Shown here piece after piece: positions 388-28,324 of a DNA stretch of 39,472 nt. Each line of letters begins with the position of its first letter. Within the stretch, counting starts at the first letter, position 1. The translations under genes and the position numbers were made by a program. The notes beneath the pieces were generated by a model. The model was not told where the DNA came from, ran no database searches, and saw nothing but the letters and a program-made list of their open reading frames with translations. Source of the DNA: Anaerolineae bacterium (GTDB lineage: Bacteria > Chloroflexota > Anaerolineae > J036 > Brachytrichaceae); contig JAHBAL020000552.1 of the NCBI GenBank assembly GCA_018500105.2, positions 1 through 39,472 on the forward strand. Reading direction: 5' to 3'.

Positions 388-576
388 GGAGTTGCAGAGT
401 GGCAGGTTGCAGGTTGCAGGTTGCAGGTGGCAAAGTGGCAGGTGGCAAAGTTGTAGGAAGAATACTGAAAATCAGTAAGGGAAAGCACTTAGAACTTAGC
501 ACTTAGCACTTGCCACTTTGCAACCTGCAACCTGCAACCTGCCACTCTGCCCCCTGCAACCTGCAACCTGCAACCT
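388..576. repeat. Inverted heptamer tandem repeat (unit GCAGGTT)
   Basis: The left arm (about 388-455) is built of GCAGGTT/GCAAAGT-type 7-nt units. The right arm (about 511-576) carries the reverse-complement units AACCTGC, repeated at least six times. Between them lies a third heptamer run, CTTAGAA-CTTAGCA-CTTAGCA (about 486-510). The whole could fold into a long imperfect hairpin. It fills the spacer between the divergent sbcD-like and cox3 genes. No coding frame explains it. Confidence 0.85.
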
Positions 577-656
577 CCTCATGACATTCCTCCGTGTAAC
601 GGCTGCACATCCTCATAGGCAGGCAAATAAAAATTGATACAATTGGCGCTTGATTT

Positions 657-1274
657 ATGAATACTCCCTCATCCTTGCAAAACGACTCGCATGAATCTGT
701 TCACGGTGAGTTGTCGCTTTCGGAAGGCAATCGCAAATTTGGTATTTGGTTGTTTCTTAGTTCCGAGTTGCTCATATTTATGGGCTTGATCGCTGGTTTG
801 TTGTTGGTGAAATGGGGCGCGGAAAAGTGGCCGCATTTTGAAGGTCCAACGTTTTATTTGGTCAGCATCAACACCTTGGTGTTGCTGCTCAGCAGCTTGA
901 CTGTGGTGCTTGGGATTGATGCCATTAAGGCCGGCGATGTTAAAAAGCTGTCAATTTATATCGCCATTAGTGCGTTCTTGGGTGTGGTGTTTTTGGGCGG
1001 GCAGGCCATCGAATACAACAATTTGATTGTGCACGAAGGACACGGCTTTGCCGATGATCCATTCGGGGCGCCATTCTTTACCCTGACTGGTTTTCACGGT
1101 TTGCACGTGTTGGTGGGCGTCATTTGGGCGCTGGCGATTTTGAATCGCGCTAAGGCTGGCGTGTTTAACGCGAAGAACTACACAACCATTGAGATGTTTG
1201 GGTTGTTTTGGCACTTTGTTGACCTCGTGTGGATTGTGATCTTTACCATTGTCTATCTGATTAACTTTAAATAA
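657..1274 (+). CDS. Cytochrome c oxidase subunit III
   Basis: This 205-residue protein belongs to the heme-copper oxidase subunit III family (CoxC/CyoC). Subunit III is an integral membrane subunit that stabilises the oxidase and supports proton uptake. About five hydrophobic helices are visible (roughly residues 28-50, 64-86, 96-117, 138-160 and 180-202). Family signatures include the SSELLIFMGLIAG block in helix 1, GHGFADDPFG in the loop, GFHGLHVLVGVIWA and the C-terminal GLFWHFVDLVWIVIF. The length matches the short five-helix form. The next gene, subunit IV, starts 3 nt downstream, so the two are co-transcribed. No subunit I or II gene adjoins this pair; the ba3-type subunits lie across lepA from about 3.77 kb. 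No clear Shine-Dalgarno precedes the ATG. Confidence 0.93.
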   Translation: MNTPSSLQNDSHESVHGELSLSEGNRKFGIWLFLSSELLIFMGLIAGLLLVKWGAEKWPHFEGPTFYLVSINTLVLLLSSLTVVLGIDAIKAGDVKKLSIYIAISAFLGVVFLGGQAIEYNNLIVHEGHGFADDPFGAPFFTLTGFHGLHVLVGVIWALAILNRAKAGVFNAKNYTTIEMFGLFWHFVDLVWIVIFTIVYLINFK

Positions 1275-1277
1275 ACC

Positions 1278-1568
1278 ATGTCATCTTCAACTCAAACCAC
1301 CCACGCCCACGCCGAGCACAAGCACGTTGATCCTAAGCGTGTATTTGTGATCTTGTTGGTTGCAACCATCATCGAAATTTTGTTGGCCATTTTTAAAGTT
1401 GCGCCAGCGGTTGCGATGCCGTTGCTGTTGGCGCTTAGCTTTGTCAAGGCGGCGTTGGTTGCGCTGTATTTTATGCACCTGCGCTACGAAAAGCCGATTT
1501 ACGGTATCGCCTTCATTGCGCCAACGCTGTTTGCGCTGTTGTTGATTGTGCTGATTTCGTTGGCGTAA
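1278..1568 (+). CDS. Cytochrome c oxidase subunit IV (prokaryotic, CyoD/CtaF-like)
   Basis: This is a 96-residue small oxidase subunit. It has a His-rich hydrophilic N-terminus (residues 7-17), the typical 'VFVILLVATIIEILLA' first helix, a second helix 'PLLLALSFVKAALVALYFMHLRYE' and a third C-terminal helix. The 'ALYFMHLRYE' segment is characteristic of prokaryotic subunit IV. In quinol and aa3 oxidases this subunit assists assembly around the CuB site. It starts 3 nt after the subunit III stop. Its stop is 7 nt before a MITE-like element at 1576, so transcription would read into that hairpin and the lepA terminator. Family assignment is firm; which subunit I it serves is unknown. Confidence 0.88.
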   Translation: MSSSTQTTHAHAEHKHVDPKRVFVILLVATIIEILLAIFKVAPAVAMPLLLALSFVKAALVALYFMHLRYEKPIYGIAFIAPTLFALLLIVLISLA

Positions 1569-1575
1569 ACAATCA

Positions 1576-1709
1576 CGGGACTTACGCGAAAGTTTGATTT
1601 TCACCACAAAGCGCACAAAGAACTCGAAGATTTGCATTGGTAAACCTTTCTTTTCTTTGTGCGCTTTGTGTTCTTTGTGGTGAAATATTTTTAATGCGCG
1701 TAAGCCCTA
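1576..1709. mobile_element. MITE-like palindromic element A, copy 1
   Basis: This is a 134-bp element with inverted ends, GGACTTACGCG on the left and CGCGTAAGCCC on the right. The interior is self-complementary and rich in ACAAAGNNC/CTTTGTG 9-nt units. It lies in the opposite orientation to the copies at 13261 and 27315. The flanks carry the direct repeat AATCA (1571-1575 and 1710-1714), consistent with a target duplication. There is no open reading frame for a transposase. It sits between the convergent cox4 and lepA genes, directly against the lepA terminator. Confidence 0.8.
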
Positions 1710-1710
1710 A

Positions 1711-1740
1711 ATCAAAAAGCCCGTCGAATTTCGACGGGCT
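1711..1740 (-). terminator. Rho-independent terminator of lepA
   Basis: An 11-bp GC-rich stem pairs AGCCCGTCGAA (1718-1728) with TTCGACGGGCT (1730-1740). On the minus strand it is followed by TTTTTGAT, a proper U tract. It begins five bases after the lepA stop codon. It may also act on plus-strand transcripts from cox3-cox4, where TTCTTTATT follows the stem. Confidence 0.85.
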
Positions 1741-1744
1741 TTCT

Positions 1745-3547
1745 TTATTCCTCAAGTTTCAGCATCGCCATGAAGGCTTCTTGTGGGATTTCGACACTGC
1801 CCACCATCTTCATGCGCTTCTTGCCTTCTTTTTGCTTTTCCAACAATTTGCGCTTACGTGTGATGTCGCCTCCATAACCCTTGGCAAGCACGTCTTTGCG
1901 CATGGCCCGCACGGTCTCACGCGCAATGACCTTTGCGCCGATGGCGGCCTGAATCGGCACTTCAAACATCTGGCGCGGAATCACGTCTTTCATTTTCTTG
2001 GTCAGCAATGCGCCCTTGTGCTGGGCCGCATCACGATGCACGATCATGGCGAGCGAGTCGAGCGGGTCGCCATTGATGAGAATATCCATTTTGACCAATT
2101 CACCGGTGCGGTAAGTGTCAAATTGATAATCGAGCGAGGCGTAGCCGCGTGAAATGCTCTTGAGTTTGTCGTAAAAATCCACGATCAGCTCGGCCAGCGG
2201 CAACTGATAGCTCAGCACCACGCGCTCGGTATCGAGATACTCCATATTCACGCTGACGCCGCGCCGCTTAATCACCAAATCCATAATCGCGCCGATATGT
2301 TCCTTGGGCGTGAAAATCTGAATCTTCATCCAAGGTTCGCGCATTTCTTCCAACTTCGACGGGTCGGGCATGTCTGATGGGCGGTCAAGTCTAACCACAT
2401 CGCCGTTCGACATCACTGCCTCATATTCGACGCTGGGCGCGGTCACCACCACATCCAGATCATATTCGCGTTCTAGCCGCTCTTGAATGATCTCCATGTG
2501 GAACATGCCCAAGAAGCCAACACGGTAGCCGAACCCAAGCGCGGTCGAGCTTTCGGGCGAGAACGTGAGCGAGGCGTCGTTTAATTGCAGTTTTTCGAGC
2601 GCGTCGCGCAGCAAGGGGTAATCGTCGGTATAGGTTGGGTAGATGCCCGCAAACACCATCGGCTTGGCGGGTTTGTAGCCCATCAGCGGCTCGACCGGGT
2701 TGAGCGCATCAATGAGCGTGTCGCCCACGCGACACTCGCGCACGCTCTTAAATCCGGTAGCAATATAACCGACTTCGCCTGCTTTCAAATCGGGCGTGAC
2801 CATCATGCGTGGGTTAAAGGCGCCAATTTCGATTGCGCCGAAGGTCGCGCCGGTGGCGGCCATGCGCAGCTTGGTTTTGTTCGTCACCATGCCGTTGATC
2901 AGCCGCGCATAGGCGATCACGCCTTTGTAGGCATCGTAGTGCGAATCGAAAATGAGCGCTTGTAGCGGCGCGTCCGTATTGCCTTTGGGCGATGGCACAT
3001 CACTTACCACCCGTTCCAGCACATCTCGAATGCCGATACCGGCTTTGGCCGAGATCTTCAAAATGTGGTCGGGGTCGTCGCCGAGCAAATTGCTGACCTC
3101 TTTTGCCACCTCATCGGGGCGGGTATGAGGCAGGTCAATCTTGTTGATGACGGGGATGACGTGTAAGTTGGCTTCGAGCGCCAAATACAGGTTTGCCAAC
3201 GTTTGCGCCTCGACCCCTTGCGAGGCATCCACCACCAACAACGCGCCTTCGCAGGCATTGAGGGCACGGCTTACTTCATAGGTGAAGTCAACATGGCCGG
3301 GGGTGTCAATTAGGTTAATCTCGTACTCAATCCCATCGTTGGCGGTGTAATTCATACGCACCGCCGAGGCTTTGATCGTCACGCCTTTTTCGCGTTCAAG
3401 ATCCATCGAGTCGAGCAATTGCTCTTGCATCTCGCGGCGTGTTACCGTGCCGGTGGCCTCGATCAGCCGGTCGGCCAAGGTTGATTTGCCATGATCAACA
3501 TGTGCAATGATGCAAAAATTTCGTATACGTTCGAGCGAATGTGTCAT
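1745..3547 (-). CDS. lepA: Elongation factor 4 (LepA), back-translocating GTPase
   Basis: At 600 residues this is the standard length for LepA/EF4, a ribosome-associated translational GTPase that remodels stalled or mistranslocated ribosomes. It opens with [21 protein letters not shown] (G1, residues 8-28) and includes DTPGHVDF (G3) and NKID (G4). The LepA-specific C-terminal domain is present: [23 protein letters not shown] near residue 565, followed by the usual [13 protein letters not shown] tail. A strong terminator follows. Upstream, a 226-bp region separates it from the divergent ba3 oxidase operon and contains an unusual palindromic site at 3617-3666. The gene appears intact. Confidence 0.98.
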
Positions 3548-3616
3548 TCAATTTGTCCAGTTTAAAAAATCGCGGCTGACATTATAAGTTGATTGCCTGA
3601 CACGTTGCTGAGGGCG

Positions 3617-3666
3617 CAATACCTAGCCAACTGGCTAGGTATTGCTGGACGGTTGGCTAGGTATTG
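3617..3666. promoter_or_regulatory. Candidate operator: inverted plus direct repeat GGCTAGGTATTG
   Basis: CAATACCTAGCC (3617-3628) and GGCTAGGTATTG (3633-3644) form a perfect 12-bp inverted repeat with a 4-bp spacer. A third exact half-site, GGCTAGGTATTG, follows at 3655-3666. The cluster lies in the divergent region between lepA and the ba3 oxidase operon. Two palindromic half-sites plus an extra direct half-site look like a binding array for a dimeric regulator. There is no T tract, so it is unlikely to be a terminator. The regulator is unknown. Confidence 0.55.
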
Positions 3667-3773
3667 TTATCCACTTGATGGTTTATTGAATCCTTATTTT
3701 TATGTAGGCTTGCACCTATGTGCGCACTTAGCGTACTCATAGACACCTACTCATTAGGATGGAGAACAAAAAA

Positions 3774-3956: not shown

Positions 3957-3959
3957 ATC

Positions 3960-4454: not shown

Positions 4455-4498
4455 TTGCGCAGGCTGATTTAAATATTCAACCTTCGCTTTTCTGAAAA

Positions 4499-6217
4499 AT
4501 GCAACTTACCCAATCACAACCCAAATCCTCAGCCGTGAATACCCAAGACTTTGCCATGCTCAATAGCGAGCGCTGGCTGGTTGGGTTACACATCCTTTCC
4601 GCATTCTTTGCTCTATTTTGGGGCGCACTCATGGGACCCTTCCAAACGTTCCATCGCTCACCGGCATTTGTGGCCGCTTTTCCAAACGCCACCATGCCCA
4701 TTTTTAGCTATTATTACCAAGCGCTCACCGCACATGGGGTATTGAACGCGCTGTTCTTTACCACCATGTTTATCACCGGCATTAGTTACTATGTCACTTG
4801 GCGCTCATTCAACCGCAGTTTGGTGGGCATGCCATTGGCATGGGTGGCCTATGTGCTTGAATTGGTCGGCCTCTTGCTCATCTTCTTTGTGCTGCTCAAT
4901 GACCCTCAACGCTCGGCGGTGCTCTTCACCTTCTATCCGCCGCTCATCGCCCCGCCGATCTTCTACATTGGCTTGGTATTGCTGGTGGTGGGTAGCTGGA
5001 TTGGTTTGTTGGTGGTTTTTTTGACCTATGGCGCTTGGCGCAAAGAGAACAAAACCGCCCGCATTCCATTGGCCCCCTTCGGCGTGATGGCAAATTATGT
5101 CATGTATTTCTTGGCGAGCTTGGGCGTGGCTGTCGAAGTCTTGGTGTTGGCGCTGCCCGCCTCACTCGGCCTCATTCAAAATACCGACCCACAACTGTCA
5201 CGCGCGTTGTTCTGGTTCTTCGGTCATCCCGTCGTTTACTTCTGGCTCATTCCGGCCTATGTGTCTTGGTATACCATGTTGCCCATTCAATCGGGGGCCA
5301 AGCGCGTGTTTAGCGAGCCGTTAGCAAAAGTAGCCTTCTTGATGCTGATGGTGTTCTCGGTTCCCACCGGTATTCACCACATGTTCGCCGACCCCGGCAT
5401 CAGCAGCACTTGGAAAGCCATTCACACCGTCTTCACTTTGATGGTGGCCGTGCCCAGCTTTATGACCGCCTTTAACATTGGCGCAACGCTCGAAATTGCG
5501 GGCCGCAATCGCGGTGGCAAGGGGTTGTTTGGCTGGATGTTTACCCAAAAGTGGACTGATCCCGTTGTGGCGGCCCAACTCATGGGCATGTTGCAATTCA
5601 TCACCGGCGGCGTGACTGGGTTGATCAACGCCTCGGCCCAAATCAACACCGTCGTGCATAACACCTCGTGGGTTCCAGCGCATTTTCATCAAACGGTGGG
5701 CGGCGCGGTTGCCATGACCTACATCGGCATCATGTATTGGCTATTGCCCATGATTCGCGGACGCGCCTTGTATAGCAAGAAGATGGCTTTGGCTCAAGTG
5801 TATACGTGGGGTTTCGGCATGACCATGTTTGGTCACACCTTGGGCGAGGCGGGTTTGGCTGGCGTGCCACGCCGCACCCTGTCTGGCTTGTCGCCTTATC
5901 TGTCAGAGGCCGCAACCTATTGGTTAAATGCCAACGCCGTGAGCGGCGTGATCTTATTGATTAGCGTCATTTTGCTATACGCCAACATCGTGCTCACTTT
6001 GTTCGCCTCGAAGGAACCCGTGACCGAAGGCGGTTATACCGTGACCAAGGGCGACCCCACCACGCCCGCCATTCTCGAACGCTGGGGCTTGTGGGTCGGT
6101 GTGGCCGTGTTTTTGGCGGTTTTGGTTTGGACCATCCCCTTCATTGATGCGATCAACTTGACCGAAGGCTTCCAGATTTTGCGCTATTCACCGGCTGGCC
6201 CAGCGCCACTCAAGTAA
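4499..6217 (+). CDS. Cytochrome c oxidase subunit I (ba3-type heme-copper oxidase)
   Basis: This is the 572-residue catalytic subunit that reduces O2 to water. The metal ligands are present: His79 (low-spin heme, TAHG), the cross-linked His243-Tyr247 pair (FGHPVVYFW), CuB ligands His293-His294 (GIHHMF), high-spin heme His395 and low-spin heme His397 (PAHFH). Many hydrophobic helices span the protein. The divergent sequence around the helices, together with the CuA form of subunit II, supports family B (ba3). Family B enzymes generally have high oxygen affinity and a single proton channel. The C-terminal membrane segment (about residues 530-555) is retained. Confidence 0.96.
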   Translation: MQLTQSQPKSSAVNTQDFAMLNSERWLVGLHILSAFFALFWGALMGPFQTFHRSPAFVAAFPNATMPIFSYYYQALTAHGVLNALFFTTMFITGISYYVTWRSFNRSLVGMPLAWVAYVLELVGLLLIFFVLLNDPQRSAVLFTFYPPLIAPPIFYIGLVLLVVGSWIGLLVVFLTYGAWRKENKTARIPLAPFGVMANYVMYFLASLGVAVEVLVLALPASLGLIQNTDPQLSRALFWFFGHPVVYFWLIPAYVSWYTMLPIQSGAKRVFSEPLAKVAFLMLMVFSVPTGIHHMFADPGISSTWKAIHTVFTLMVAVPSFMTAFNIGATLEIAGRNRGGKGLFGWMFTQKWTDPVVAAQLMGMLQFITGGVTGLINASAQINTVVHNTSWVPAHFHQTVGGAVAMTYIGIMYWLLPMIRGRALYSKKMALAQVYTWGFGMTMFGHTLGEAGLAGVPRRTLSGLSPYLSEAATYWLNANAVSGVILLISVILLYANIVLTLFASKEPVTEGGYTVTKGDPTTPAILERWGLWVGVAVFLAVLVWTIPFIDAINLTEGFQILRYSPAGPAPLK

Positions 6218-6307
6218 TTTTAGAGTTTAGATTTTGGATTTTAGATTCTTTAACTTAAATAAGCTTAAAGCGAAAAATCCGAAATCTAAAATCCAAAATC
6301 TAAAATT
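6216..6307. repeat. Inverted heptamer repeat (unit TTTAGAT / TTTGGAT)
   Basis: The left arm (6216-6248) consists of TTTAGAT, TTTGGAT and TTTAGAT units. The right arm (6281-6307) holds the reverse complements AATCTAA-AATCCAA-AATCTAA. The roughly 30-nt spacer itself contains CTTTAA...TTAAAG. The left arm begins at the last base of the subunit I stop codon, and the repeat fills nearly the whole gap to the next gene. A long AT-rich hairpin in the transcript is likely. Confidence 0.85.
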
Positions 6308-7647: not shown

Positions 7648-7708
7648 GTTATATGATGAAGCAGGTGACTCATGACGTATATCAACGATGAATCTGCTCT
7701 AAGGACAT

Positions 7709-7872
7709 TAAGGCTGTTCAAAAGTCGCCTCGTCATTCCCTCGAAAGAGGGAATCCATAACGCTACAGGCACAAATCGAGTGCGTTGCGCCATTTTTTGC
7801 GGGCCTCGTTATGGATCTCCGCGTTCGCGGAGATGACGTATTAAGCGCAATGCTGACTTTTGAACAGCCTTA
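7709..7872. mobile_element. MITE-like element C with 16-bp inverted ends and TA flanks
   Basis: AAGGCTGTTCAAAAGTC (7710-7726) and GACTTTTGAACAGCCTT (7855-7871) are perfect inverted ends, and both are flanked outside by completion to TA. This fits insertion at a TA dinucleotide, as in IS630/Tc1-mariner elements. Internally, CGTCATTCCCTCGAAAGAGGGAATCCATAACG-type hairpins and the partner CGTTATGGAT...ATGACG make a second level of pairing. There is no transposase frame. It ends 54 nt upstream of glcD and may affect glcD expression. Confidence 0.75.
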
Positions 7873-7926
7873 CTAAGGCCATATGATGTGTCAAAAATGA
7901 TCGCAAAATGCGATAAACTATAGCCA

Positions 7927-10447: not shown

Positions 10448-11656
10448 GTGACTACCCTAACCCCCCACACACCCGCCGAACTTGCCGAGATTGTGCGCGA
10501 GGCACAGGCAAAAAATGTCGTGATTGTGCCGCAAGGCGGCGATACGCACCAAAGCATTGGCAACCCGCTGGCCCCGAATGGCCGCGAGGTGATTAAGGCT
10601 AATCTGCGCTGGCTCAACCGTGTGGTTGAATACGAACCAAACGATATGGTCATCGGCGTCGAGGCGGGCATGACCTTTGCCGAGCTAGACGCGCTGGTGC
10701 GCCCAAACGGGCAAATGCTGCCGCTCGATGTGCCAGTGCCGAGCCGATGCACAGTGGGCGGAGCGCTGGCTGTGGCCGCCGATGGCCCTCGCCGCCTTGG
10801 GTATGGCACATTGCGCGACCTGACTTTGGGCGTGCAGGTGGTCGAAGCCAGCGGGCAGCAAAGCAAAGCCGGTGGCATGACGGTGAAAAACGTGAGTGGC
10901 TACGACCTGATGAAGTTGTATCACGGCAGCTATGGCACATTGGGCATTATCACCCGCGTCAATTTTAAATTGTTGCCGCGTCCACGCGCCGCCGCTACGG
11001 TGCGAATGGGTTTCGAGTCGTTTGAGGCAGCCTTCAAATTGATTGATGCCCTGCAAGCCAGCCAATACACACCAGCGGCGGTTGAGCTAATTTGCGATTC
11101 AAAGCACAATGGCGTGTCGCGTGCCGCCCAAATCGAAGTGGCGTTGCTGGCCGATGGCTTGCCCGAAGCTGTTGCGCGGCACGAGCGCGACATTCCAGTG
11201 TTGGCTAAAAAATTTGGCAGCAAAGACGCGATTATTTTGCGCGGCGAAAGTCACGACACATTTTGGGCCTATGTTGCCGATCTGCCCCAAGTCGCTGAGC
11301 TTTCACTCGACAAACTGGCCTTGAAATTGGCATGTTTGCCCAGCGAACTGGGTAAAGCTGTGACCTTGGCCCAAAAACTGGCCGATCAATTTAACCTTGT
11401 GTTGACGTTGAATGCGCGGGCGCTGAATGGCGTGGCTTACGTGCGGGTGCGCGGCAGCAATGCCAATTTGCAAGCCTTTCATGCCGCCTTGCTGGTGCAA
11501 TTTCCTCGCACTATTGTTATGGGTGCGCCCGAAGGGTTGCGTGGCAAACTGGCCGTGTGGGGCAACGATGTCAATGGCCTCGACATCATGCGCCGCATCA
11601 AACACGAATTTGACCCACATAATCTGTTCAATCCGGGCCGGTTTGTGTGTCTGTGA
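10448..11656 (+). CDS. glcE: FAD-binding subunit GlcE-like of glycolate oxidase
   Basis: This 402-residue protein has the FAD-binding PCMH fold: an N-terminal 'TPAELAEIVREAQAKNVVIVPQGG' segment, 'VEAGMTFAELDALV', and the PVPSRCTVGGALAVAADGPRRLGYGTLRDLTLG block that corresponds to the flavin site. It ends with DPHNLFNPGRF, the standard family C-terminus. GlcE pairs with GlcD in the glycolate oxidase complex. The usual third subunit, the iron-sulfur protein GlcF, is absent here; the next gene is an opposed P450. The start is GTG at 10448, the first start codon in the homologous frame. The stop codon TGA is the first triplet of a tandem heptamer repeat. Confidence 0.88.
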   Translation: MTTLTPHTPAELAEIVREAQAKNVVIVPQGGDTHQSIGNPLAPNGREVIKANLRWLNRVVEYEPNDMVIGVEAGMTFAELDALVRPNGQMLPLDVPVPSRCTVGGALAVAADGPRRLGYGTLRDLTLGVQVVEASGQQSKAGGMTVKNVSGYDLMKLYHGSYGTLGIITRVNFKLLPRPRAAATVRMGFESFEAAFKLIDALQASQYTPAAVELICDSKHNGVSRAAQIEVALLADGLPEAVARHERDIPVLAKKFGSKDAIILRGESHDTFWAYVADLPQVAELSLDKLALKLACLPSELGKAVTLAQKLADQFNLVLTLNARALNGVAYVRVRGSNANLQAFHAALLVQFPRTIVMGAPEGLRGKLAVWGNDVNGLDIMRRIKHEFDPHNLFNPGRFVCL

Positions 11657-11766
11657 GCCATGAGCCATGAGCCATGAGCCATGAGCTTTGGATTTTGATT
11701 GAGCTAATAGCTGCGTAAACGCGCACTCTTAAAGCTCAAAGCTCATGGCTCAAGGCTCAAAGCTTC
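11654..11766. repeat. Inverted heptamer repeat (unit TGAGCCA) beginning in the glcE stop codon
   Basis: Five units of the TGAGCCA type run from 11654, so the glcE stop TGA is the first triplet of the array. The right arm (about 11731-11766) carries AAGCTCA/GGCTCA units that are its approximate reverse complement. The array fills the gap between the convergent glcE and P450 genes, and no other terminator is visible there. It may act as a bidirectional transcript-end hairpin. Confidence 0.85.
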
Positions 11767-13218: not shown

Positions 13219-13260
13219 ATTGTCAATAGGCAAACCCAATTTCACAGCAAACTCTTAGGT

Positions 13261-13394
13261 TAGGACTTACGCGCATTAAAAACATTTCGCCATAAAGAAC
13301 ACAAAGGGCACAAAGGAAAGAAAGATGTGTCAATGCAAATCTTTGAGTTCTTTGTGCCCTTTGCGGTAAAAATCAAACTTTTGCGTAAGTCCTA
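13261..13394. mobile_element. MITE-like palindromic element A, copy 2
   Basis: This is an intact 134-bp copy with ends TAGGACTTACGCG and GCGTAAGTCCTA. The interior is self-complementary, with ACAAAGGGC/GCCCTTTGTG units. It is flanked exactly by the direct repeat AGGT (13257-13260 and 13395-13398). It lies between the twin operators and the TetR start, so it has been inserted into the divergent promoter region and separates the regulator gene from the operator sites. Confidence 0.87.
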
Positions 13395-15640: not shown

Positions 15641-16855
15641 GTGAACACAACAAAAATTTTAAGCATCGCTTGTTTGTTATCGGTAACGCTGGCGGCTTGC
15701 GCCCAGCCGACAGCCGCCCCCGCCAAACCGGCTGACGCTGCCAAACCGGCTGCGCCTGCCGCCGGTGCAAAAGGCGACCCCTATGTCATTGGCGTGTTGG
15801 TTGACCTAAACGGTCCTAGCTCGGCCTTGGGCGACCCATCGAAGAAGACAGTGGAACTGTATGCCAAAAAAATCAACGATGCCGGTGGCGTAAAAGGCCC
15901 TGACGGCAAGATGCACGACATTAAATTGGAAGTGTATGATGGCGAAAGCGACCCAGCAAAGAATACCGTTGGTATGAAGGCGTTGGTTGATAAGAAAGTA
16001 TTGGCGGTGGTTGGCCCCACCAGCACGGCCTCGGCTTTGGCAGTTGCACCCATCGCCACCGAATCAAAGATTTCGGTGATGGCTGTCGCCGCCGGTATCG
16101 CGGTTCCGTCTGCGTCGCCATTTATGTTCCAAACCGCGCAAAATGATGCAAACGGCTCGGCTGCATTGGCGGGTTATTTCAAGACCCAAAATATCAAGAA
16201 GATCGCCATTTTGCATGACACCACTGCGTTTGGTCAAGGCGGGCGCGACGAATGGCGCAAATTGCGCGACAAGGGCGATGTCGCCATTACGTATGAGGGC
16301 GGTTTTGCTACCACCGATACCGATGTGAGTAGCCAAATTTCTGCCGCCGATGCCACCAAACCCGATGGCATTGTGGTGTGGACGACGGTCAACCCTGCTG
16401 CTGTGGTGGTGAAGAACTGGGCTAACCTTGGCGGCAAGACACCCATTTTCTTTAGTCACGGCATCGGCAACCCTACGCCGTTCATCAAGACCACCGGCTC
16501 ATCGGCCAATGGCGCACGCTTGCCGATTGGGCGCATTATTGTGGTGAACGAAGTGCCGGATGGACATCCGCAAAAGAGCTTGTTGGCGCAATATGACAAA
16601 GATTGGCGCGCCGCCTATAACACCGACCCCTCGACCTTCGGCGGTCACGCTTATGATGGTTTCATGCAAGTCGTTCGCGCGCTCGAAACAGCCGGTAACG
16701 ATACGGTTAAGTTGAAAGAGACGATCGAATCGGGCAAGCCTTTCGTTGGCATCACTGGCGTATTCACCTATGTAAAAGACAACCACAACGGGTTGCCCAA
16801 TGATTCATTGGTGATGGTCGAAATCAAGAACGAGAAATTCCAATTGATTAAATAG
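15641..16855 (+). CDS. livK: Branched-chain amino acid-type ABC transporter substrate-binding lipoprotein
   Basis: This 404-residue Peripla_BP_6 (Leu/Ile/Val-binding) protein has a lipoprotein signal peptide, lipobox LAAC with Cys20. It is followed by an Ala/Pro linker (21-45) typical of surface-anchored binding proteins in monoderm-like bacteria. The mature domain starts at 'YVIGVLVDLNGPSSALG' and includes VVGPTSTASALAVAPIA, the usual ligand-cleft region. It captures ligand for the LivHMGF complex encoded directly downstream. The ligand may be an amino acid, amide or urea; sequence cannot say. It uses a GTG start with GGAGAAG 5 nt upstream. Its stop codon runs into a heptamer repeat. Confidence 0.92.
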   Translation: MNTTKILSIACLLSVTLAACAQPTAAPAKPADAAKPAAPAAGAKGDPYVIGVLVDLNGPSSALGDPSKKTVELYAKKINDAGGVKGPDGKMHDIKLEVYDGESDPAKNTVGMKALVDKKVLAVVGPTSTASALAVAPIATESKISVMAVAAGIAVPSASPFMFQTAQNDANGSAALAGYFKTQNIKKIAILHDTTAFGQGGRDEWRKLRDKGDVAITYEGGFATTDTDVSSQISAADATKPDGIVVWTTVNPAAVVVKNWANLGGKTPIFFSHGIGNPTPFIKTTGSSANGARLPIGRIIVVNEVPDGHPQKSLLAQYDKDWRAAYNTDPSTFGGHAYDGFMQVVRALETAGNDTVKLKETIESGKPFVGITGVFTYVKDNHNGLPNDSLVMVEIKNEKFQLIK

Positions 16856-16979
16856 CCATGAGCCGTGAGCTATGAGTCGTGAGCGACGAGTTTTGGATGC
16901 ATCGTATTTCTATCAAACTCAAAGCGCATGGCGCATGGCTCACGGCTATCTGACTACTGACTACTGATTACTAACTACG
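16854..16979. repeat. Heptamer repeats between livK and livH (GAGCCGT and ACTGACT units)
   Basis: The left arm (16854-16892) reads AGCCATGAGCCGTGAGCTATGAGTCGTGAG-like units from inside the livK stop TAG. Its right arm (16918-16949) is GCGCATG-GCGCATG-GCTCACG. A second, unpaired array of ACTGACT/ACTGATT units (16950-16979) abuts the livH start. The GAGCCAT-type unit is shared with the glcE-P450 junction. Confidence 0.82.
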
Positions 16980-16983
16980 CCAC

Positions 16984-17973: not shown

Positions 17974-18115
17974 GAAATTACGAATTACGAATTTGGGGAA
18001 GGTGTGTTATGAATGAAGCGTAATCGTAATGAGTAATGAGTAATGAGTAATGAGTAATATAAATTCGCAAAACTCAATTCGTAATTCGTAATTCGTAATT
18101 CGTAATTCGTAATTC
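17974..18115. repeat. Nested heptamer repeats between livH and livM (GTAATTC around GAGTAAT)
   Basis: The left outer arm (17974-17998) has AATTACG units. The right outer arm (18075-18115) has six GTAATTC-type units that are its reverse complement. Between them sits an independent tandem array of four GAGTAAT units (18026-18058). The array starts immediately after the livH stop and ends 5 nt before the livM ATG. The same GTAATTC unit recurs at 29701. Confidence 0.9.
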
Positions 18116-19087: not shown

Positions 19088-19162
19088 GTAGTGGATAGTG
19101 GATAGTGATAGTGGATAGTAAAAACAACGATCACTATCTACTATCACTATCCACTATCCACT
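19088..19162. repeat. Inverted heptamer repeat between livM and livG (unit GATAGTG)
   Basis: The left arm 19088-19119 reads GTAGTGGATAGTGGATAGTG-like units, and the right arm 19129-19162 reads CACTATC/CCACTATC units. A spacer of about 10 nt gives a nearly complete hairpin. It begins 2 nt after the livM stop and ends 6 nt before the livG ATG, filling the gap. Confidence 0.9.
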
Positions 19163-19935: not shown

Positions 19936-19993
19936 TGAATGAATGAGCGGATGCGTGCAATCCCGCATTCGCTCATTCATTCATTCACTCATT
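19936..19993. repeat. Inverted tandem repeat between livG and livF (GAATGAAT / ATTCATTC)
   Basis: TGAATGAATGAGCGGATGCG (19936-19955) faces CGCATTCGCTCATTCATTCA (from 19964) across an 8-nt spacer. The perfect inner core is GAATGAGCG(G)ATGCG against CGCAT(T)CGCTCATTC. The unit is mixed 4/7-nt. It fills the gap between livG and the true livF start at 20000. Confidence 0.82.
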
Positions 19994-21455: not shown

Positions 21456-21458
21456 ATG

Positions 21459-21743
21459 TTGAATGGTTGATTAGTTGAATGGTTGATTAAATGGTTGATT
21501 AGTTGATTGGTTGATTGGTTGATTGAACGGTTGATTGGTTGATTGAATGGTCGAGTTGATTGAGTATCACTTGTAGGTCATTATTCAACCAATCAACTAA
21601 TCAACGAATCAACTAATCAACCAATCAACTAATCAACCAATCAACTAATCAACCAATCAACCAATCAACTAATCAACCAATCAACCAATCAACCAATCAA
21701 CTAATCAACCAATCAACTAATCAACCATTCAACTAATCAACCA
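21459..21743. repeat. Large inverted octamer/heptamer array (GGTTGATT / AATCAACC)
   Basis: The left arm (about 21459-21563) has repeated GGTTGATT, AGTTGATT and GGTTGATTG units. The right arm (21581-21743) holds about twenty AATCAACC/AATCAACT units, its reverse complement. The array fills the gap between the GNAT start (21455) and the AOR stop (21746). It is the longest such array in the window. Unlike a CRISPR, the units are contiguous with no spacers. Confidence 0.95.
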
Positions 21744-21745
21744 AC

Positions 21746-23671: not shown

Positions 23672-23763
23672 GAGGATTGGGATTTTGCAAATTTGGCTTT
23701 GGCTTGTCAAGATTGAGTGATAAACTGCGAGTAATCCCTAATCCCTAACCCCAATTCCTAATC
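23672..23763. repeat. Weak inverted heptamer repeat upstream of the moaD-like gene (TAATCCC)
   Basis: GTAATCCCTAATCCCTAACC (from 23731) is a tandem TAATCCC array reaching the start codon of the moaD-like gene. GAGGATTGGGATT (23672-23684) is a short partial reverse complement. The rest of the 125-bp divergent gap holds no clear promoter. The array leaves little space for a conventional ribosome site. Confidence 0.55.
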
Positions 23764-24050: not shown

Positions 24051-24054
24051 CTTA

Positions 24055-24126
<72 letters not shown>

Positions 24127-24173: not shown

Positions 24174-26147
24174 ATGATTTGGTGGATTAAAAATTTTGCA
24201 ACGGCAAAATTAGCCTTGCTTGCCGTGCTGATCTTGGCGGCTGGGCTGCGCCTATTTGCCCTTGATCAAATAGACGTGCGTTACGACGAGGCCGCCGCGC
24301 CAATTTTTGCCCACGAGGTCGCGCACGGCATCTTACATCCAGTCGTGCCATTTAGCGGCTCGGTGGCGCGGCATCCGGCTGTTTGGATCTATGTTTTGGC
24401 GCTGCCGTATCTATTTACCGCCAATTTTTATGTCATCGCCGCTTATCGTGTCATGCTCGACGTGCTGGCGGTGGCGCTGACCGGCTGGCTCGGCTGGCGC
24501 TATTTCAATCGGCGTGTCGGCTTATTTGCCACGCTATTATTTGCCACCGCACCTTGGGCCGTGCATTTGTCGCGCAAATTATGGACTGCGCCGCTGGCCT
24601 TGTGGTCGGTGTTGGCCCTGATTGGGTTGCTCGAAGTGGCCCAGCGCCGCAACCCTAAAGGTTGGTTATTGGCGTTGTGGGGGTTGTCATTGGCCGTCGG
24701 CACACACTTAGCCGCGCTCTATCTGCTGCCACTGGCGCTGTTTGTGGCAATGGCTTTTTGGCGCACCTTGCGTTGGCGCTGGCTGGCAATGGGTTTGCTG
24801 CCCGCGTTGCTCATTGCTGCGGCCTATGGCTATTACGACCAGCAACACAGTTTCGCCAACCTTCGCGCCATGCTTGGGCCATCGGCTCAGCCCAGCGTGC
24901 TTGGCCTGAGCGCATTTCGCTTTGCCTTGTGGCTAAGCGGCGGCACGCACCTCAGCGATTTGACCGGCAGCGCCATTTTGCAATGGCAGTGGCAAAATGC
25001 GTGGGCGCTTGAGTGGATTGACGAATTGCAAATGGCGTGGTTATTGCTGGCCTTGTTTGCGGCTATTTTTGCTGGCGCAAAAGCAATTGTTCCGCGTTGG
25101 CAGGCTGGTGAGATAAATGGCGTCATGCAGCGCCGTGTCGGCCTTGGCATTTTGGCCTTGTGGTGGTTGCTGCCGGTGCTGGCGCATGTGCGCCACGTCG
25201 AACCTTTTCAGGTGCATTACATTTCGCCGCTTTACCCAGCGCCGTTTTTGCTCATGGCATGTTTTGCCGATCAACTTTGGCGTAGTTTGGCGCAATGGGG
25301 GCGGGCGTTTCGTTGGGCGTGGCGCGGGGCGATTATGCTGTTTATGCTGAGCGTGTGTGCGTGGCAACTGTTCACCGTGTGGCGCTTCGGCAATTTTGTG
25401 GCGCAACACGAGACCAGCGGCTATCGTCCCATTGCGCCAGCGTTGCGGGCGGCACAGGCGGTGGCAAGTGTCGCACAGCAGCGCGGTGGCGAGGTGATTG
25501 TGCTTGTGCCCAATGCCGACCCAGCCGTGAACGAAGAGGCGGCGATTTTGCACTTTGCTTTGCTCGGTCAGCCGCATCGTTTTAGCGATGCATCGGCGGG
25601 GTTAATTGTATGCCCTCAAAACCACTGCCAATATTTGATTGGGCCGGGCGGGGCGCAAGCCAGCGATTATTTAACCCCGCAAGCCTTGTCACAAACACGA
25701 CTCGATCCGCGTTATGGCGTGGCAACCTTAAATCTGGCGCAGGTGTTCCCCGTCCCGTTACAACCCATTCCCAACGCCCCGCTGGGGGCCAATGGGGTGC
25801 AATTTACCGCCTACGCCATCCAGCGCCAGCCCGACAAATTGCGCGTGTGGCATTGGCTCACAGTGATGAATGCGCCACCCCCTCGGCAAGATTATCATTG
25901 GTATAACCACGTGTTAAACGCCGCTGGGCAAAAAGTTGCCCAGCGCGACAGCGGCGGTGTTGCCCCCGCGAATTGGCAGTTGGGCGATCAACTATTGCAT
26001 TGGTTCGATATTCCGCTCACAGCGGAGCAGTCGCGCCAGACTGACTCACTTCGCATAGGCAGTTATGAATATCCCAAAATCAAGCCGGTGATGCTGAAAT
26101 TTGCCGATGGATCGGAGCAGGATGGGGTAATGCTGAATATCCGTTAG
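24174..26147 (+). CDS. Membrane glycosyltransferase, GT39/ArnT-like (polyprenyl-phosphate sugar user)
   Basis: This is a 657-residue polytopic membrane protein. The first helix (about 12-28) is followed by 'LRLFALDQIDVRYDEA', where Asp38-Glu39 is the acidic motif in the first outer loop of GT-C enzymes such as ArnT, PMT and related mannosyltransferases. About 11-12 further hydrophobic helices extend to near residue 410. They are followed by a soluble C-terminal domain of about 250 residues with a beta-rich pattern. Such enzymes transfer a sugar from a polyprenyl-phosphate carrier to protein or lipid at the outer face. I start at the ATG at 24174 rather than a TTG at 24162; neither has a good Shine-Dalgarno. 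Family placement is fairly safe; substrate is unknown. Confidence 0.78.
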   Translation: MIWWIKNFATAKLALLAVLILAAGLRLFALDQIDVRYDEAAAPIFAHEVAHGILHPVVPFSGSVARHPAVWIYVLALPYLFTANFYVIAAYRVMLDVLAVALTGWLGWRYFNRRVGLFATLLFATAPWAVHLSRKLWTAPLALWSVLALIGLLEVAQRRNPKGWLLALWGLSLAVGTHLAALYLLPLALFVAMAFWRTLRWRWLAMGLLPALLIAAAYGYYDQQHSFANLRAMLGPSAQPSVLGLSAFRFALWLSGGTHLSDLTGSAILQWQWQNAWALEWIDELQMAWLLLALFAAIFAGAKAIVPRWQAGEINGVMQRRVGLGILALWWLLPVLAHVRHVEPFQVHYISPLYPAPFLLMACFADQLWRSLAQWGRAFRWAWRGAIMLFMLSVCAWQLFTVWRFGNFVAQHETSGYRPIAPALRAAQAVASVAQQRGGEVIVLVPNADPAVNEEAAILHFALLGQPHRFSDASAGLIVCPQNHCQYLIGPGGAQASDYLTPQALSQTRLDPRYGVATLNLAQVFPVPLQPIPNAPLGANGVQFTAYAIQRQPDKLRVWHWLTVMNAPPPRQDYHWYNHVLNAAGQKVAQRDSGGVAPANWQLGDQLLHWFDIPLTAEQSRQTDSLRIGSYEYPKIKPVMLKFADGSEQDGVMLNIR

Positions 26148-26197
26148 AAATCGGGTAGAAATCGAGTTTCTGAAAGAAACCCGATTTCTTAATTTTG
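26146..26197 (+). terminator. Hairpin terminator after the glycosyltransferase gene
   Basis: AGAAATCGGGT (26146-26156) pairs with ACCCGATTTCT (26179-26189). An inner pairing, GAAATCGAGTTTC against GAAACCCGATTTC, gives an alternative fold. A T-rich tail (TTAATTTTG) follows. It begins within the stop codon of the gene and probably terminates it ahead of the next gene at 26213. Confidence 0.65.
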
Positions 26198-26212
26198 AGT
26201 TACACTAACGCC

Positions 26213-27265
26213 ATGAAAATACTCATCATTGGGGCAGGAGCGATTGGCATTTGGGTGGCGAGCCAGATTCGTCAGCACGACCCAGACGGCAAGCATGCGG
26301 TCATTTTGTTGGGCCGGCCTCGTTTTGTGGCGGCTGCCAATGCGGATGGCATTCAGGTCAGCCATTTGCAAGCACCCGCGCAACCCCTGCACCATGTGAC
26401 GCCGATTGCGGACTTGGCCGACTTGCCCGCCTCAGCCACGCCTTTGGATGCAGTGATCGTTTGCACCAAGGCGTATTCTGTGCCGAGTGTGATCGCCGAT
26501 TTGCAGGCAGGACAGGCGGCAAACCCAATGCTGATGGACAAACGAACCTGTGTGGTGGCTTTTCAAAATGGGGTGGGCAGCGAAGAAGCCTTTGCTGAGG
26601 CGTTTGGCGCAGGCAATGTTGTGGCGGCGACGACCACCGTGCCCGTATCTGTGCTTGGCGCGGCGGCGATTCGCATTGAGCGGCTGAAGGGTGGGGCGGG
26701 TGTGGCGAGCATGGGCGGTGCGCCTGTTGACGATTTGGCGCAATTGCTCGGTGCAGTGATGTATGCCGACTGGCGGGCGATGAAATGGTCGAAATTGTTG
26801 CTGAATCTGGTTGGCAATGCCAGCAGTGCCATCTTGGGTTGGCCCGTCGGGCAAATTTATGCGCATTCGGCTGGTTTTCGGCTTGAAATTGCCATGTTGC
26901 GCGAATGTTTGGCCGTAATGCACGCGCAGGGTATTGGCGTGGTTGATCTGCCGGGTTCACGCGCTCGGCAATTGGCGCTGGTGGTGAAATGGCTGCCCAA
27001 TGCGCTGCTGAAACCCATTTTGGGCAAGCAAGCTGCCAAAGGGCGCGGCGATAAAATGCCCTCGTTTTATTACGAGGTGGAAAATCGTAGCCGCGATTGC
27101 GAGGTGAGCTATTTGAATGGCGCGATTGCCGCGCATGGGCAGCGGCTTGGCGTCGCTACGCCCACCAATCATTGCTTAAATACCGTGCTTAAGCAAATCA
27201 TTGCCCAGCCAGAAACTTGGCAAGCATGGAAAGGGCAGCCCGATAAATTGCTTGCCGCTGTGTGA
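26213..27265 (+). CDS. panE: 2-Dehydropantoate 2-reductase (ketopantoate reductase)
   Basis: This 350-residue PanE/ApbA-family oxidoreductase reduces ketopantoate to pantoate with NADPH in the pantothenate/CoA pathway. It opens with the Rossmann motif GAGAIGIW (7-14). The catalytic Lys lies in TKAYSVPS, and the substrate-binding 'WSKLLLNLVGNA' block with the conserved Lys and Asn is present. The C-terminal domain includes 'PSFYYEVENRSRDCEVSYLNGAI', the family's substrate-recognition region. Other ApbA-like reductases share these traits, so the specific substrate is not certain. I start at ATG 26213; a TTG 18 nt upstream lies in the terminator tail. Confidence 0.88.
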   Translation: MKILIIGAGAIGIWVASQIRQHDPDGKHAVILLGRPRFVAAANADGIQVSHLQAPAQPLHHVTPIADLADLPASATPLDAVIVCTKAYSVPSVIADLQAGQAANPMLMDKRTCVVAFQNGVGSEEAFAEAFGAGNVVAATTTVPVSVLGAAAIRIERLKGGAGVASMGGAPVDDLAQLLGAVMYADWRAMKWSKLLLNLVGNASSAILGWPVGQIYAHSAGFRLEIAMLRECLAVMHAQGIGVVDLPGSRARQLALVVKWLPNALLKPILGKQAAKGRGDKMPSFYYEVENRSRDCEVSYLNGAIAAHGQRLGVATPTNHCLNTVLKQIIAQPETWQAWKGQPDKLLAAV

Positions 27266-27314
27266 GGTGTTATGCTGGACAAAGCGGAGCGGCAATGGCC
27301 TTGATGTCTTTGCT

Positions 27315-27586
27315 TAGGACTTACGCGCATTAAAAATATTTCGCCACACAGAACACAAAAATCACAAAGAAAAGAAGGTTTACCAATGCAAATCTTTGAT
27401 TTCTTTGTGTGCTTTGTGTCAAAAATCGTAAAAGCTTAGGCAGGCAAGTCGTTCGGGATATTTTAACCACGAAAAGCACAAAACACACGAAAGAGAATTC
27501 TATTTTAGTGTGTTTCGTGTCTTTCGTGGTTCAGCAAGCCCAGCGACTAAGCTTTTACCAAAAATCAAACTTTCGCGTAAATCCTA
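27315..27586. mobile_element. MITE-like palindromic element A, copy 3, split by a nested element
   Basis: The ends are TAGGACTTACGCG (27315-27327) and CGCGTAAATCCTA (to 27586), flanked exactly by the direct repeat TGCT (27311-27314 and 27587-27590). It is in the same orientation as the copy at 13261. It measures 272 bp instead of 134 because element B is inserted at 27428-27558; removing element B and one 8-bp duplication restores 133 bp. Confidence 0.88.
27428..27558. mobile_element. Nested MITE-like element B with 12-bp inverted ends and 8-bp target duplication
   Basis: GTAAAAGCTTAG (27428-27439) and CTAAGCTTTTAC (27547-27558) are perfect inverted ends. The 131-bp element is flanked by exact 8-bp copies of CAAAAATC (27420-27427 and 27559-27566), where intact element A has only one. 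The interior contains a hairpin of CACGAAA/TTTCGTG units (27465-27532). No transposase is encoded. Confidence 0.9.
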
Positions 27587-27588
27587 TG

Positions 27589-28236
27589 CTAACTCAATAA
27601 TAAGCGGGTGAAAAAGTTGGCTGGCGCTGAAACAAGCCCGCTAAAGATGCCGGTATTCATCGCCAAGATGAGGATGATGAAGCCGTATCGCTCGATTTGG
27701 TGCAGAATATCGCTCATCGAGTCGGGCAAAACGGCGGCCAAAATGCGCGAACCATCGAGTGGCGGCACTGGAATGAGGTTGAAGAAAGCCAAGAATAGAT
27801 TAATGCGCACGGCAATAATGCACAAATATTCTAACAAAATAATGTCAGATGTTTTGATCAATTGGTAAACGAAACCAAAACCAATCGCCAGCAAAATATT
27901 TGACACTGGCCCAGCCAATGCCACCAGTGCAAAGGCGACCTTGGGATTTCCGTTTAGGCGATAGGTGTTGACCGGCACAGGTTTGGCCCAACCAAAGCCA
28001 AACGCGAGCAATAACAGCGAGCCAACCAGATCGAGGTGCACAAACGGGTTGATGGTGAGCCGCCCCATGCGTTCGGCGGTGTCGTCGCCCAACTTATTGG
28101 CAGCCCAAGCGTGGGCGTATTCGTGGATGGGAAAGCAGATGAACAACAAAACAGCCATTGCGCCGAGCGTCGCTAACGCTGCCATGAAATTGCCGCTTGC
28201 GAGTGCGTTGATAAAATCAAAAATTGGTCCGCCCAT
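27589..28236 (-). CDS. Site-2 protease-like M50 membrane metalloprotease
   Basis: This is a 215-residue membrane protein of the M50 (S2P) family. The zinc motif is HEYAH (His38, Glu39, His42) within the first hydrophobic region. The third ligand motif is NLIPVPPLDGS (153-163), with Asp161. Five to six hydrophobic helices are visible. It is the short form without PDZ or CBS domains. Substrates of such small S2P proteases are largely unknown; membrane anchors or signal peptide remnants are plausible. The start, ATG complementary to 28234-28236, is followed upstream by the mreB-side repeat. Its stop lies 3 nt from the end of MITE-like element A copy 3. Confidence 0.9.
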   Translation of the reverse strand: MGGPIFDFINALASGNFMAALATLGAMAVLLFICFPIHEYAHAWAANKLGDDTAERMGRLTINPFVHLDLVGSLLLLAFGFGWAKPVPVNTYRLNGNPKVAFALVALAGPVSNILLAIGFGFVYQLIKTSDIILLEYLCIIAVRINLFLAFFNLIPVPPLDGSRILAAVLPDSMSDILHQIERYGFIILILAMNTGIFSGLVSAPANFFTRLLLS

Positions 28237-28241
28237 GGTGG

Positions 28242-28324
28242 AAATTAAAAATTGAAAATTGAAAATAGAGAATTTAAAATTGGACTTCAGTTGTTAATTT
28301 TAAATTTTCCATTTTAAATTTTAC
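28242..28324. repeat. Inverted heptamer repeat (unit AAATTGA)
   Basis: The left arm (28242-28281) contains AAATTAAAAATTGAAAATTG-type units, and the right arm (28295-28324) contains TTAAATTTTCCATTTTAAAT-like reverse complements. It fills the gap between the mreB stop and the M50 protease start on the minus strand. Confidence 0.75.

What the first reader, a model, noticed from the sequence alone, without database searches (positions are those of the whole stretch)
388..28324. A dispersed family of intergenic heptamer palindromes, each locus with its own repeat unit
Seen directly: at 388-576, 6216-6307, 11654-11766, 16854-16979, 17974-18115, 19088-19162, 19936-19993, 21459-21743 and 28242-28324 (weaker at 23672 and 29701), the gene-free gaps are built of short tandem units, mostly 7 nt, placed as arm, spacer and reverse-complement arm. 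Units differ by locus: GCAGGTT, TTTAGAT, TGAGCCA, GTAATTC, GATAGTG, AATCAACC (8 nt), AAATTGA. None lies inside a gene. The design is constant while the sequence varies. Heterocystous cyanobacteria carry heptameric STRR repeats, but a system of locus-specific inverted pairs in a Chloroflexota-like genome looks little described. Possible roles (inference): transcript-end hairpins, mRNA stabilisers, or a replication-slippage or template-switch product that copies an arm to the other side.
Basis: partly seen in the sequence, partly recalled or inferred. Interest (0 to 1): 0.78.

Follow-up and report, generated by a model that had tools for sequence, protein, structure and literature searches.

The report
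Inward-facing heptamer hairpins between genes
Many gaps between genes in this uncultured Chloroflexota bacterium are filled by seven-letter repeats that face each other in one strict orientation and often swap their repeat word between sister species, which points to a DNA copying or repair process rather than to an ordinary gene signal.

Summary
The arrays are real, at the stated places, and far beyond chance. They recur through the genome and in two of three relatives of the genus, often at the same gaps, so they are not assembly artefacts. 'Locus-specific' needs correcting: units come from a shared lexicon, many one base apart. Two rules were not in the finding. Polarity: units face inward, the C-poor strand forming the 5' arm on either strand (112 of 114 testable arms; 21 of 21 in divergent gaps); for one unit, 10 loci in 21 whole genomes have this order, none the reverse. 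Place: arrays abut the stop codon (median 2 nt) but keep off start codons (median 17 nt). Loops are locus-specific, stem mismatches show no G-U bias, units change at orthologous gaps, and reverse transcriptase or Y1 transposase genes do not track the arrays. The closest published case is the G-rich heptamer pairs of Xanthomonas; here 5 of 144 arms have GGG, so G-quadruplexes are not the general cause. Best guess: break-and-copy turnover of DNA, extending C-poor 3' ends toward the centre; that step is inferred. A new variant of a known kind.

The parts
390..457 (+). left arm, unit GCAGGTT and variants (strand = strand that reads the inward, C-poor unit, here and below)
   Evidence: TRF; read
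484..522 (-). inner array AGCACTT, merging into the right arm
   Evidence: TRF
519..576 (-). right arm, AACCTGC (reverse complement of GCAGGTT)
   Evidence: TRF
6217..6247 (+). left arm, ATTTTAG/TTTTGGA, starting at the stop codon of the COX1-like gene
   Evidence: TRF; Pfam COX1
6274..6306 (-). right arm, AAAATCC/AAAATCT
   Evidence: TRF
11654..11686 (+). left arm, TGAGCCA; the stop codon TGA is its first triplet
11731..11764 (-). right arm, AAAGCTC/TGGCTCA
16854..16891 (+). left arm, TGAGCCG and variants, between a substrate-binding protein gene and a livH-like permease gene
16924..16947 (-). inner right arm, GCGCATGGCGCATGGCTCACGGCT
16950..16978 (-). outer right array CTGACTA; possible remnant of the TAGTCAG/CTGACTA hairpin that fills the orthologous gap of G003
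   Evidence: ortholog L116:3448-3529
17976..17993 (+). left arm, GAATTAC, between livH-like and livM-like genes
18026..18058 (+). inner array GTAATGA
18076..18115 (-). right arm, GTAATTC
19089..19119 (+). left arm, GATAGTG, between livM-like and livG-like genes
   Evidence: folds at -51.5 kcal/mol, z -11.8
19132..19162 (-). right arm, CACTATC
19936..19993 (.). small inverted pair GAATGAATGAGCG ... CGCTCATTCATTC (4/8-mer) between the livG-like gene and the next reading frame
21458..21563 (+). left arm, 8-mer GGTTGATT
21585..21744 (-). right arm, 8-mer AATCAACC; same unit in G002 and G003
23732..23763 (-). weak right arm TAATCCC; orthologous gaps of G002 and G003 carry GAAGGAT arms with an inner TAATCCC-type array
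28242..28282 (+). left arm, AAATTGA
28296..28328 (-). right arm, AATTTTA/TTTTACA, running up to the stop codon of mreB; the same gap is 10, 10 and 18 nt without array in G003, G002 and G001
29697..29727 (-). solo array GTAATTC

Best explanation
These are palindromes built and rebuilt at the DNA level. Shown: in each gap the C-poor heptamer strand runs 5' to 3' from each gene edge toward the middle; the unit is shared between loci but the loop is not; units are exchanged at about half of the orthologous gaps compared while the place is kept. Inferred: when such a palindrome breaks or stalls a fork in its middle, both 3' ends carry the C-poor strand; they re-prime on any array of the same or a one-step-related heptamer elsewhere in the genome, copy a few units and are rejoined. 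Arms thus grow inward from the gene edges, keep their polarity, drift by point mutation and now and then switch unit. Sequence that is not needed is eaten away as far as the stop codon on one side and the start signals on the other. No benefit to the cell is required; any effect on mRNA ends would be secondary.
For: Polarity: 78 of 78 same-unit neighbouring pairs in consistent order; per locus, 55 G-richer-first, 1 the other way, 7 balanced (63 loci); of 144 arms, 114 have a unit also seen in another gap and 112 of these agree with it, 21 of 21 in divergent gaps (no ties). GCAGGTT in 21 whole genomes: 9 loci of G000 and 1 of G003 in this order, 0 in the reverse. Array-free hairpins of the same genomes: 20 of 58. 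Solo arrays follow the rule from the nearest gene, 26 against 8, 28 undecided. Heritable units: 37 one-substitution links in the inward orientation against mean 23.6, maximum 32, in 200 random flips. Arms share a unit or a one-step variant in 53 of 72 gaps (30 plus 23; random pairing gives 2.9 identical). Loops: of 16 loop-to-loop matches among 40 loops (0 in five shuffles), the 14 listed are heptamer-like stretches or one pair of orthologs. Turnover: 15 orthologous gaps read by eye: same unit 4, same outer unit with other interior 1, changed unit 7, presence or absence 3. Array edge to stop codon median 2 nt (n=70), to start codon 17 nt (n=74), p=7e-8. No G-U bias: 37 against 40 and 13 against 19.
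Against: No break, no copying event and no enzyme was seen. Ku matches in none of the 21 genomes, so the rejoining step has no known route here. SbcD matches in 19 of 21 genomes, with or without arrays, so it explains nothing by itself. In one divergent gap the loop core is nearly identical between G002 and G003, which fits growth around a kept core better than a break in the middle. Layers inside orthologous gaps cannot be ordered in time without an outgroup. Shared order of variants between the two arms is slight (52 of 60 above the permuted mean, 1 of 60 with p at or below 0.05) but leans the other way, to arm copying. 8 solo arrays and 2 arms break the polarity.
Confidence: 0.4

Rival explanations
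1. RNA hairpins kept by selection at gene ends: bidirectional terminators, mRNA 3' stabilisers or processing signals. Any heptamer would do if it pairs, so sequence drifts while the stem stays.
For: Arrays abut the stop codon; six window gaps fold far better than shuffled RNA (z -3.5 to -11.8, 0 of 200 shuffles as good in each); stems of array gaps are far above shuffled. Ordinary long hairpins sit in array-free gaps of the same genomes (8 of 153, 14 of 87 and 24 of 114 gaps). Arrays per kb of gap are fewer between divergent genes (0.87 against 1.33 to 1.64).
Against: Stem mismatches show no G-U preference. Polarity has no obvious RNA reason and holds in divergent gaps (21 of 21). They sit between genes of one liv-like cluster. 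Depletion between divergent genes is uncertain per gap: 15 of 76 against 94 of 294, but 23 of 102 against 111 of 411, p=0.38. Array-free hairpins, which should serve the same role, lack the polarity.
Confidence: 0.22
2. Replication slippage alone: heptamers grow by polymerase slippage wherever sequence is unconstrained, and template switching makes the inverted arm.
For: Heptamers were the commonest long simple repeats in most genomes surveyed, and slippage tied to the stretch held by the polymerase was proposed (Mrazek 2007, as told in PMC4679880, passage seen; the 2007 paper itself was not read). Arrays fill sequence that is free to change.
Against: Does not explain the strict polarity, the lexicon shared by many loci, or arms with unrelated units that mostly still face inward (12 such gaps). 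Arms are not closer to each other than to arms elsewhere.
Confidence: 0.2
3. A trans-acting writer: an unknown enzyme, telomerase-like or transposase-like, adds C-poor heptamers to 3' ends or moves them.
For: Polarity is that of repeats added to both 3' ends of a break. Presence differs sharply within one genus: 0 exact arrays in 148 kb of G001 against 27 in 177 kb of the window and random contigs of G000.
Against: No RVT_1 match in G000 or G002, both with arrays (3 in G003). No Y1 transposase match in G002, 3 in G001, which has no arrays (5 each in G000 and G003). Whole hairpins with their loops are not moved. Assemblies are 78 to 95% complete, so a missing gene is weak evidence.
Confidence: 0.12
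4. G-quadruplex elements, as proposed for the G-rich heptamers of Xanthomonas and Nostoc.
For: Same layout, same stop-codon side and same strand rule in PMC4692102.
Against: Only 5 of 144 arms have a unit with GGG; orientation is as strict in units whose longest G run is 1 (73 against 2).
Confidence: 0.02

Closest known systems
GGGAATC repeats of Xanthomonas and GGGGA(C/T)T repeats of Nostoc PCC 7120 (Rehm et al. 2015, PMC4692102; passages and the discussion section read)
   Same: Heptamer units, mostly intergenic; in Xanthomonas 70 and 75 pairs in convergent orientation; [quoted passage not shown] length and sequence variation between related species at the same gaps.
   Different: There one G-rich unit type was studied, read as a G-quadruplex former. 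Here dozens of units, few with GGG, one polarity for nearly all, and unit exchange at orthologous gaps.
P6b stem of the trnL group I intron of Nostoc (PMC4476775, passages and section 18 read; PMC3488679, passages read)
   Same: Stem built of heptamer repeats (TDNGATT or NNTGAGT); whole repeat class replaced several times independently while the hairpin stays.
   Different: Inside an intron of one tRNA gene, not dispersed in gaps between protein genes; no Rfam intron match in the window.
Heptamer repeats of heterocystous cyanobacteria (STRR); Nostoc PCC 7120 hyp operon repeats (PMC2408588, passages and table 3 read)
   Same: Intergenic tandem heptamers; ccactgactactgac there is the CTGACTA unit here, and attgcgaattg gives the unit AATTGCG, seen here at L024.
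   Different: Other phylum; described as repeats, few as inverted pairs. My cyanobacterial sample was plasmids only (1 Mb, 14 exact period-7 arrays, one inverted pair).
TAACTGA repeats of Beggiatoaceae (PMC4679880, passages read)
   Same: Intergenic direct heptamers spread through a genome and scattered over phyla.
   Different: One unit, nearly all direct, most just before start codons.
REP elements with RAYT transposases (PMC3733652, passages read)
   Same: Dispersed extragenic palindromes, reported from Chloroflexi among others.
   Different: Not built of heptamers; tied to a Y1 transposase, which is not consistently present here.

Membership tests
Xanthomonas/Nostoc G-rich heptamer repeats (PMC4692102) | period of 7, mostly intergenic | tested here: met
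Xanthomonas/Nostoc G-rich heptamer repeats (PMC4692102) | pairs in convergent orientation | tested here: met
   112 of 114 testable arms
[quoted passage not shown]
   median 2 nt
Xanthomonas/Nostoc G-rich heptamer repeats (PMC4692102) | GGG tracts able to form G-quadruplexes | tested here: not met
   5 of 144 arms
Xanthomonas/Nostoc G-rich heptamer repeats (PMC4692102) | rare between divergent genes | tested here: inconclusive
   23 of 102 against 111 of 411 gaps, p=0.38; 15 of 76 against 94 of 294 by another criterion
Xanthomonas/Nostoc G-rich heptamer repeats (PMC4692102) | preference for four units | not tested
   -
Xanthomonas/Nostoc G-rich heptamer repeats (PMC4692102) | transcribed | not testable with these tools
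   no RNA data
cyanobacterial STRR | intergenic tandem heptamers | tested here: met
cyanobacterial STRR | same units as in cyanobacteria | tested here: inconclusive
   1 of 5 units of a 250 kb cyanobacterial plasmid stretch shared, 0.26 expected, P 0.24; two published Nostoc units occur here
trnL P6b heptamer stem | lies in a group I intron | tested here: not met
   only a tRNA reaches an Rfam gathering score in the window
REP/RAYT | RAYT (Y1_Tnp) in the genome | tested here: not met
   0 matches in G002, which has arrays; 3 in G001, which has none; 5 in G000 and 5 in G003
REP/RAYT | GTAG tag at one end of the palindrome | not tested
   -
reverse-transcribed or telomerase-like repeats | reverse transcriptase gene | tested here: not met
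   no RVT_1 match in G000 or G002 (3 in G003); G000 and G002 are 92 and 94% complete

The most novel reading that the evidence does not exclude
A bacterial end-healing process adds C-poor heptamer repeats to both 3' ends at broken intergenic palindromes, telomere fashion, from a heritable genome-wide lexicon, and the scattered heptamer repeats of Chloroflexota, Xanthomonas and heterocystous cyanobacteria are all traces of it. Nothing here excludes it: the polarity is the one predicted, loops are not carried along, and units switch at fixed places.
Probability: 0.15. Interest if true: 0.88.

Novelty: new variant of a known kind. Interest (0 to 1): 0.56.

Why it matters
Heptamer repeats in bacterial gaps have been known for decades (recalled) and, in the papers I read, have no accepted origin or function. 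A polarity that holds for dozens of units in every gap type, and unit switching at fixed places, are strong constraints that any mechanism must meet. In this genus they also set aside G-quadruplex formation as the general reason for the layout. The rules can be tested at once in other genomes and in a cloned E. coli assay.

Tried and rejected
Fold-back copying of one arm from the other: a first permutation test looked strong (57 of 65 above the permuted mean, 28 with p below 0.05) but used arms already chosen for matching. Repeated on whole tracts it fell to 1 of 60 with p at or below 0.05, though 52 of 60 stayed above the mean, and against other loci own arms were not closer.

Transposition or gene conversion of whole hairpins: loops are not shared between loci beyond heptamer-like stretches (14 of 16 matches seen). 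Reverse transcriptase, Y1 transposase and Ku do not track the arrays; SbcD is nearly universal.

Stop-codon supply as the cause of polarity: 88 of 144 arms carry a stop triplet in the inward unit and 59 in the reverse complement, a lean but not a rule, and divergent gaps obey the polarity too.

Cyanobacterial lexicon: 1 Mb of Nostocales plasmids holds few arrays, so the comparison has little power; cyanobacterial chromosomes were not reached.

The first gene caller failed for three genomes and was replaced. A first gap-type count hinted at depletion in divergent gaps; with another criterion and more loci it was not significant.
Full report
What is there. The window is one contig (G000:C55) of a 5.34 Mb, 574-contig genome. 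Its phylum follows from a relative: G003, of the same genus, has a contig 40 of the same length (30,892 bases) as contig 40 of a public MAG labelled Thermoflexus hugenholtzii, a Chloroflexota name that may be a placeholder. Arrays of period 7, some 8, stand at nearly every listed place. Exact period-7 arrays dominate (27 of period 7 and 8 of period 8 in 177 kb; none of any period in five Markov shuffles). Across 439 kb, 114 of 132 TRF arrays of period 7 are mostly outside predicted genes (genes from a home-made caller). Two relatives of the same genus have them (G002, G003); the third (G001) has no exact array in 148 kb. G005 (15 exact arrays) and G010 (5) of the same family have some, in pieces partly chosen for matching arrays.

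Orthologous gaps. The window is collinear with contigs of G002 and G003 at roughly 70-86% identity in the main matches. I compared gaps by their flanks: 25 window gaps, 22 with an ortholog, and the gaps of two further contig pieces. In 15 gaps at least one genome has an array and an ortholog was found, counted by eye with imperfect and 8-mer arrays included (exact period-7 runs occur in at least one genome at 9 of the 11 window gaps). Of these 15, 4 keep the unit in all genomes compared (11657, 17974, 19087, 21396), 1 keeps the outer unit with a different interior (L019:3350), 7 have a different unit (324, 6218, 16856, 23639, 29413, L018:15635, L018:18889) and 3 have the array in only some genomes (28237, 38272, L019:2330; the last has no period-7 run in 847 nt of G002). 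The clearest switch is L018:15635-15860, a divergent gap: a left flank matching at 91% is followed by GAGTAAC arms in G000 and TGAGCC arms in G002. At 28237-28326 the window has a pair of arms; the same gap is 10, 10 and 18 nt without array in G003, G002 and G001. At 16856-16983 the window has a TGAGCC hairpin plus an outer CTGACTA array, while G003 has a TAGTCAG/CTGACTA hairpin only; the outer array may be a remnant, though the unit is common enough to be acquired twice. Arrays at the same places in separate assemblies also speak against an assembly artefact.

A shared lexicon. 171 period-7 runs in 439 kb of G000 fall into 55 units. 18 of 36 G003 units and 17 of 32 G002 units are shared with G000, against about 2 by chance (maximum 9 and 6). 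The two arms of a gap have the same majority unit in 30 of 72 gaps (random pairing 2.9, maximum 9) and one-step-related units in 23 more.

Polarity. Reading from either gene edge inward, a unit nearly always has one orientation. Same-unit neighbours: 78 of 78 pairs. Per locus: 55 with the G-richer unit first, 1 the other way, 7 balanced. Of 144 arms in 72 two-arm gaps (34 in G000, 14 in G002, 24 in G003), 30 have units seen in no other gap; of the rest 112 agree with other gaps and 2 do not, by gap type 42 to 2, 32 to 0, 17 to 0 and, divergent, 21 to 0. Whole-genome test with one unit in 21 genomes: GCAGGTT arm, up to 60 bases, AACCTGC arm gives 13 matches at 9 loci of G000 and 2 matches at 1 locus of G003; the reverse order gives none. 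The sampled contigs were partly chosen for holding this unit, which biases density but not order. Inward units are poor in C (A 33%, G 29%, T 27%, C 11%). Hairpins without arrays in the same genomes show no such order (20 of 58 G-first). Solo arrays mostly obey it from the nearest gene (26 to 8, 28 undecided). Units one substitution apart are more often related in the inward orientation than after random flips (37 against mean 23.6, maximum 32 of 200; letters shuffled within units, mean 19.2, maximum 30), so polarity seems to be inherited as units mutate.

Place. In two-arm gaps array edges lie a median 2 nt from stop codons and 17 nt from start codons (70 and 74 edges, p=7e-8); start positions are less certain than stops. 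Lag-7 similarity climbs across the stop codon (0.23 at -25, 0.45 at -5, 0.74 at +5; 97 gaps). Often the stop codon belongs to the array, as at 11654. Array-free hairpins in tandem gaps stand further off, though some in convergent gaps abut.

What it is not. G-quadruplexes: 5 of 144 arms have GGG. Selection on RNA pairing: mismatches compatible with G-U are not commoner (37 and 13) than the incompatible ones (40 and 19). A mobile cassette: of 16 loop-to-loop matches the 14 I saw are heptamer-like or orthologs. RAYT or RVT_1 products: the genes do not track the arrays. Simple arm copying: own arms are no closer than arms elsewhere, although a slight shared order remains.

How it may work. The facts ask for something that adds C-poor heptamers toward the centre of a gap, takes the unit from elsewhere in the genome and leaves the loop alone. 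Palindromes are known hot spots of double-strand breaks (abstract start of PMC4245961, seen in the listing). A break in the middle would give two 3' ends that both carry the C-poor strand. Re-priming on other arrays would extend them with related units, keep polarity and allow switching. Erosion of useless flanks would stop at the stop codon and at the start signals. This chain is inferred; the rejoining step is unexplained since no Ku match was found, and one divergent gap with a kept loop core does not fit a central break.

What is known. Rehm et al. (PMC4692102; passages and discussion read) described GGGAATC pairs in convergent orientation, close to stop codons on the sense strand, in Xanthomonas, and few such pairs in Nostoc. 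They showed G-quadruplex formation by oligonucleotides and found no function. In Nostoc the trnL P6b stem is built of one of two heptamer classes, with repeated replacement of one by the other (PMC4476775). Among the titles and abstract starts listed by seven searches of an open-access library (lists capped at 10 to 15) I saw no report of such pairs in Chloroflexota, nor of one polarity across many units; most subscription papers were not searchable. So: a new variant of a known kind, with rules that bear on its origin.

Noticed in passing
window 1-25: The contig starts with a sequence that looks like the Nextera transposon end adapter (recalled), so its first bases are probably an untrimmed adapter; the gene there (SbcD-like) is cut and seems to continue on contig C513.
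   Followed up: partly
window 13258-13394, 1578-1710, 27314-27427: A roughly 135-base dispersed element with palindromic ends (AGGACTTACGC...GCGTAAGTCCTA), perhaps a MITE: 12 copies in the 439 kb sample of G000, 4 in G002, 1 in G003, 0 in the G001, G005 and G010 samples. A related copy seems, by eye, to lie inside the loop of the heptamer hairpin at the G003 ortholog of gap 17974.
   Followed up: partly
window 7707-7873: A second dispersed element of about 165 bases; many copies in G003 and several in G002 by whole-genome search; 5 in the G000 sample, 3 in the G003 sample, 0 in the G002 sample.
   Followed up: partly
window 35229-35402 and orthologs: Long non-heptamer hairpins in other gaps; between G002 and G003 the stem differs by changes on both sides that largely keep pairing, as for ordinary terminators (by eye).
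   Followed up: no
G000 contig and locus ends: 11 of 73 exact period-7 arrays lie within 150 nt of a locus end, where 2.6% of the bases are (contigs partly chosen for arrays, and some locus ends are not contig ends), so arrays may break the assembly and be undercounted.
   Followed up: no
L073, L074, L090, L188-L193 (G005): A genome of another genus of the family has exact arrays of mixed period (6, 7, 9, 10, 11, 13); its AAATCTG pairs are 4 of 4 in one order.
   Followed up: no
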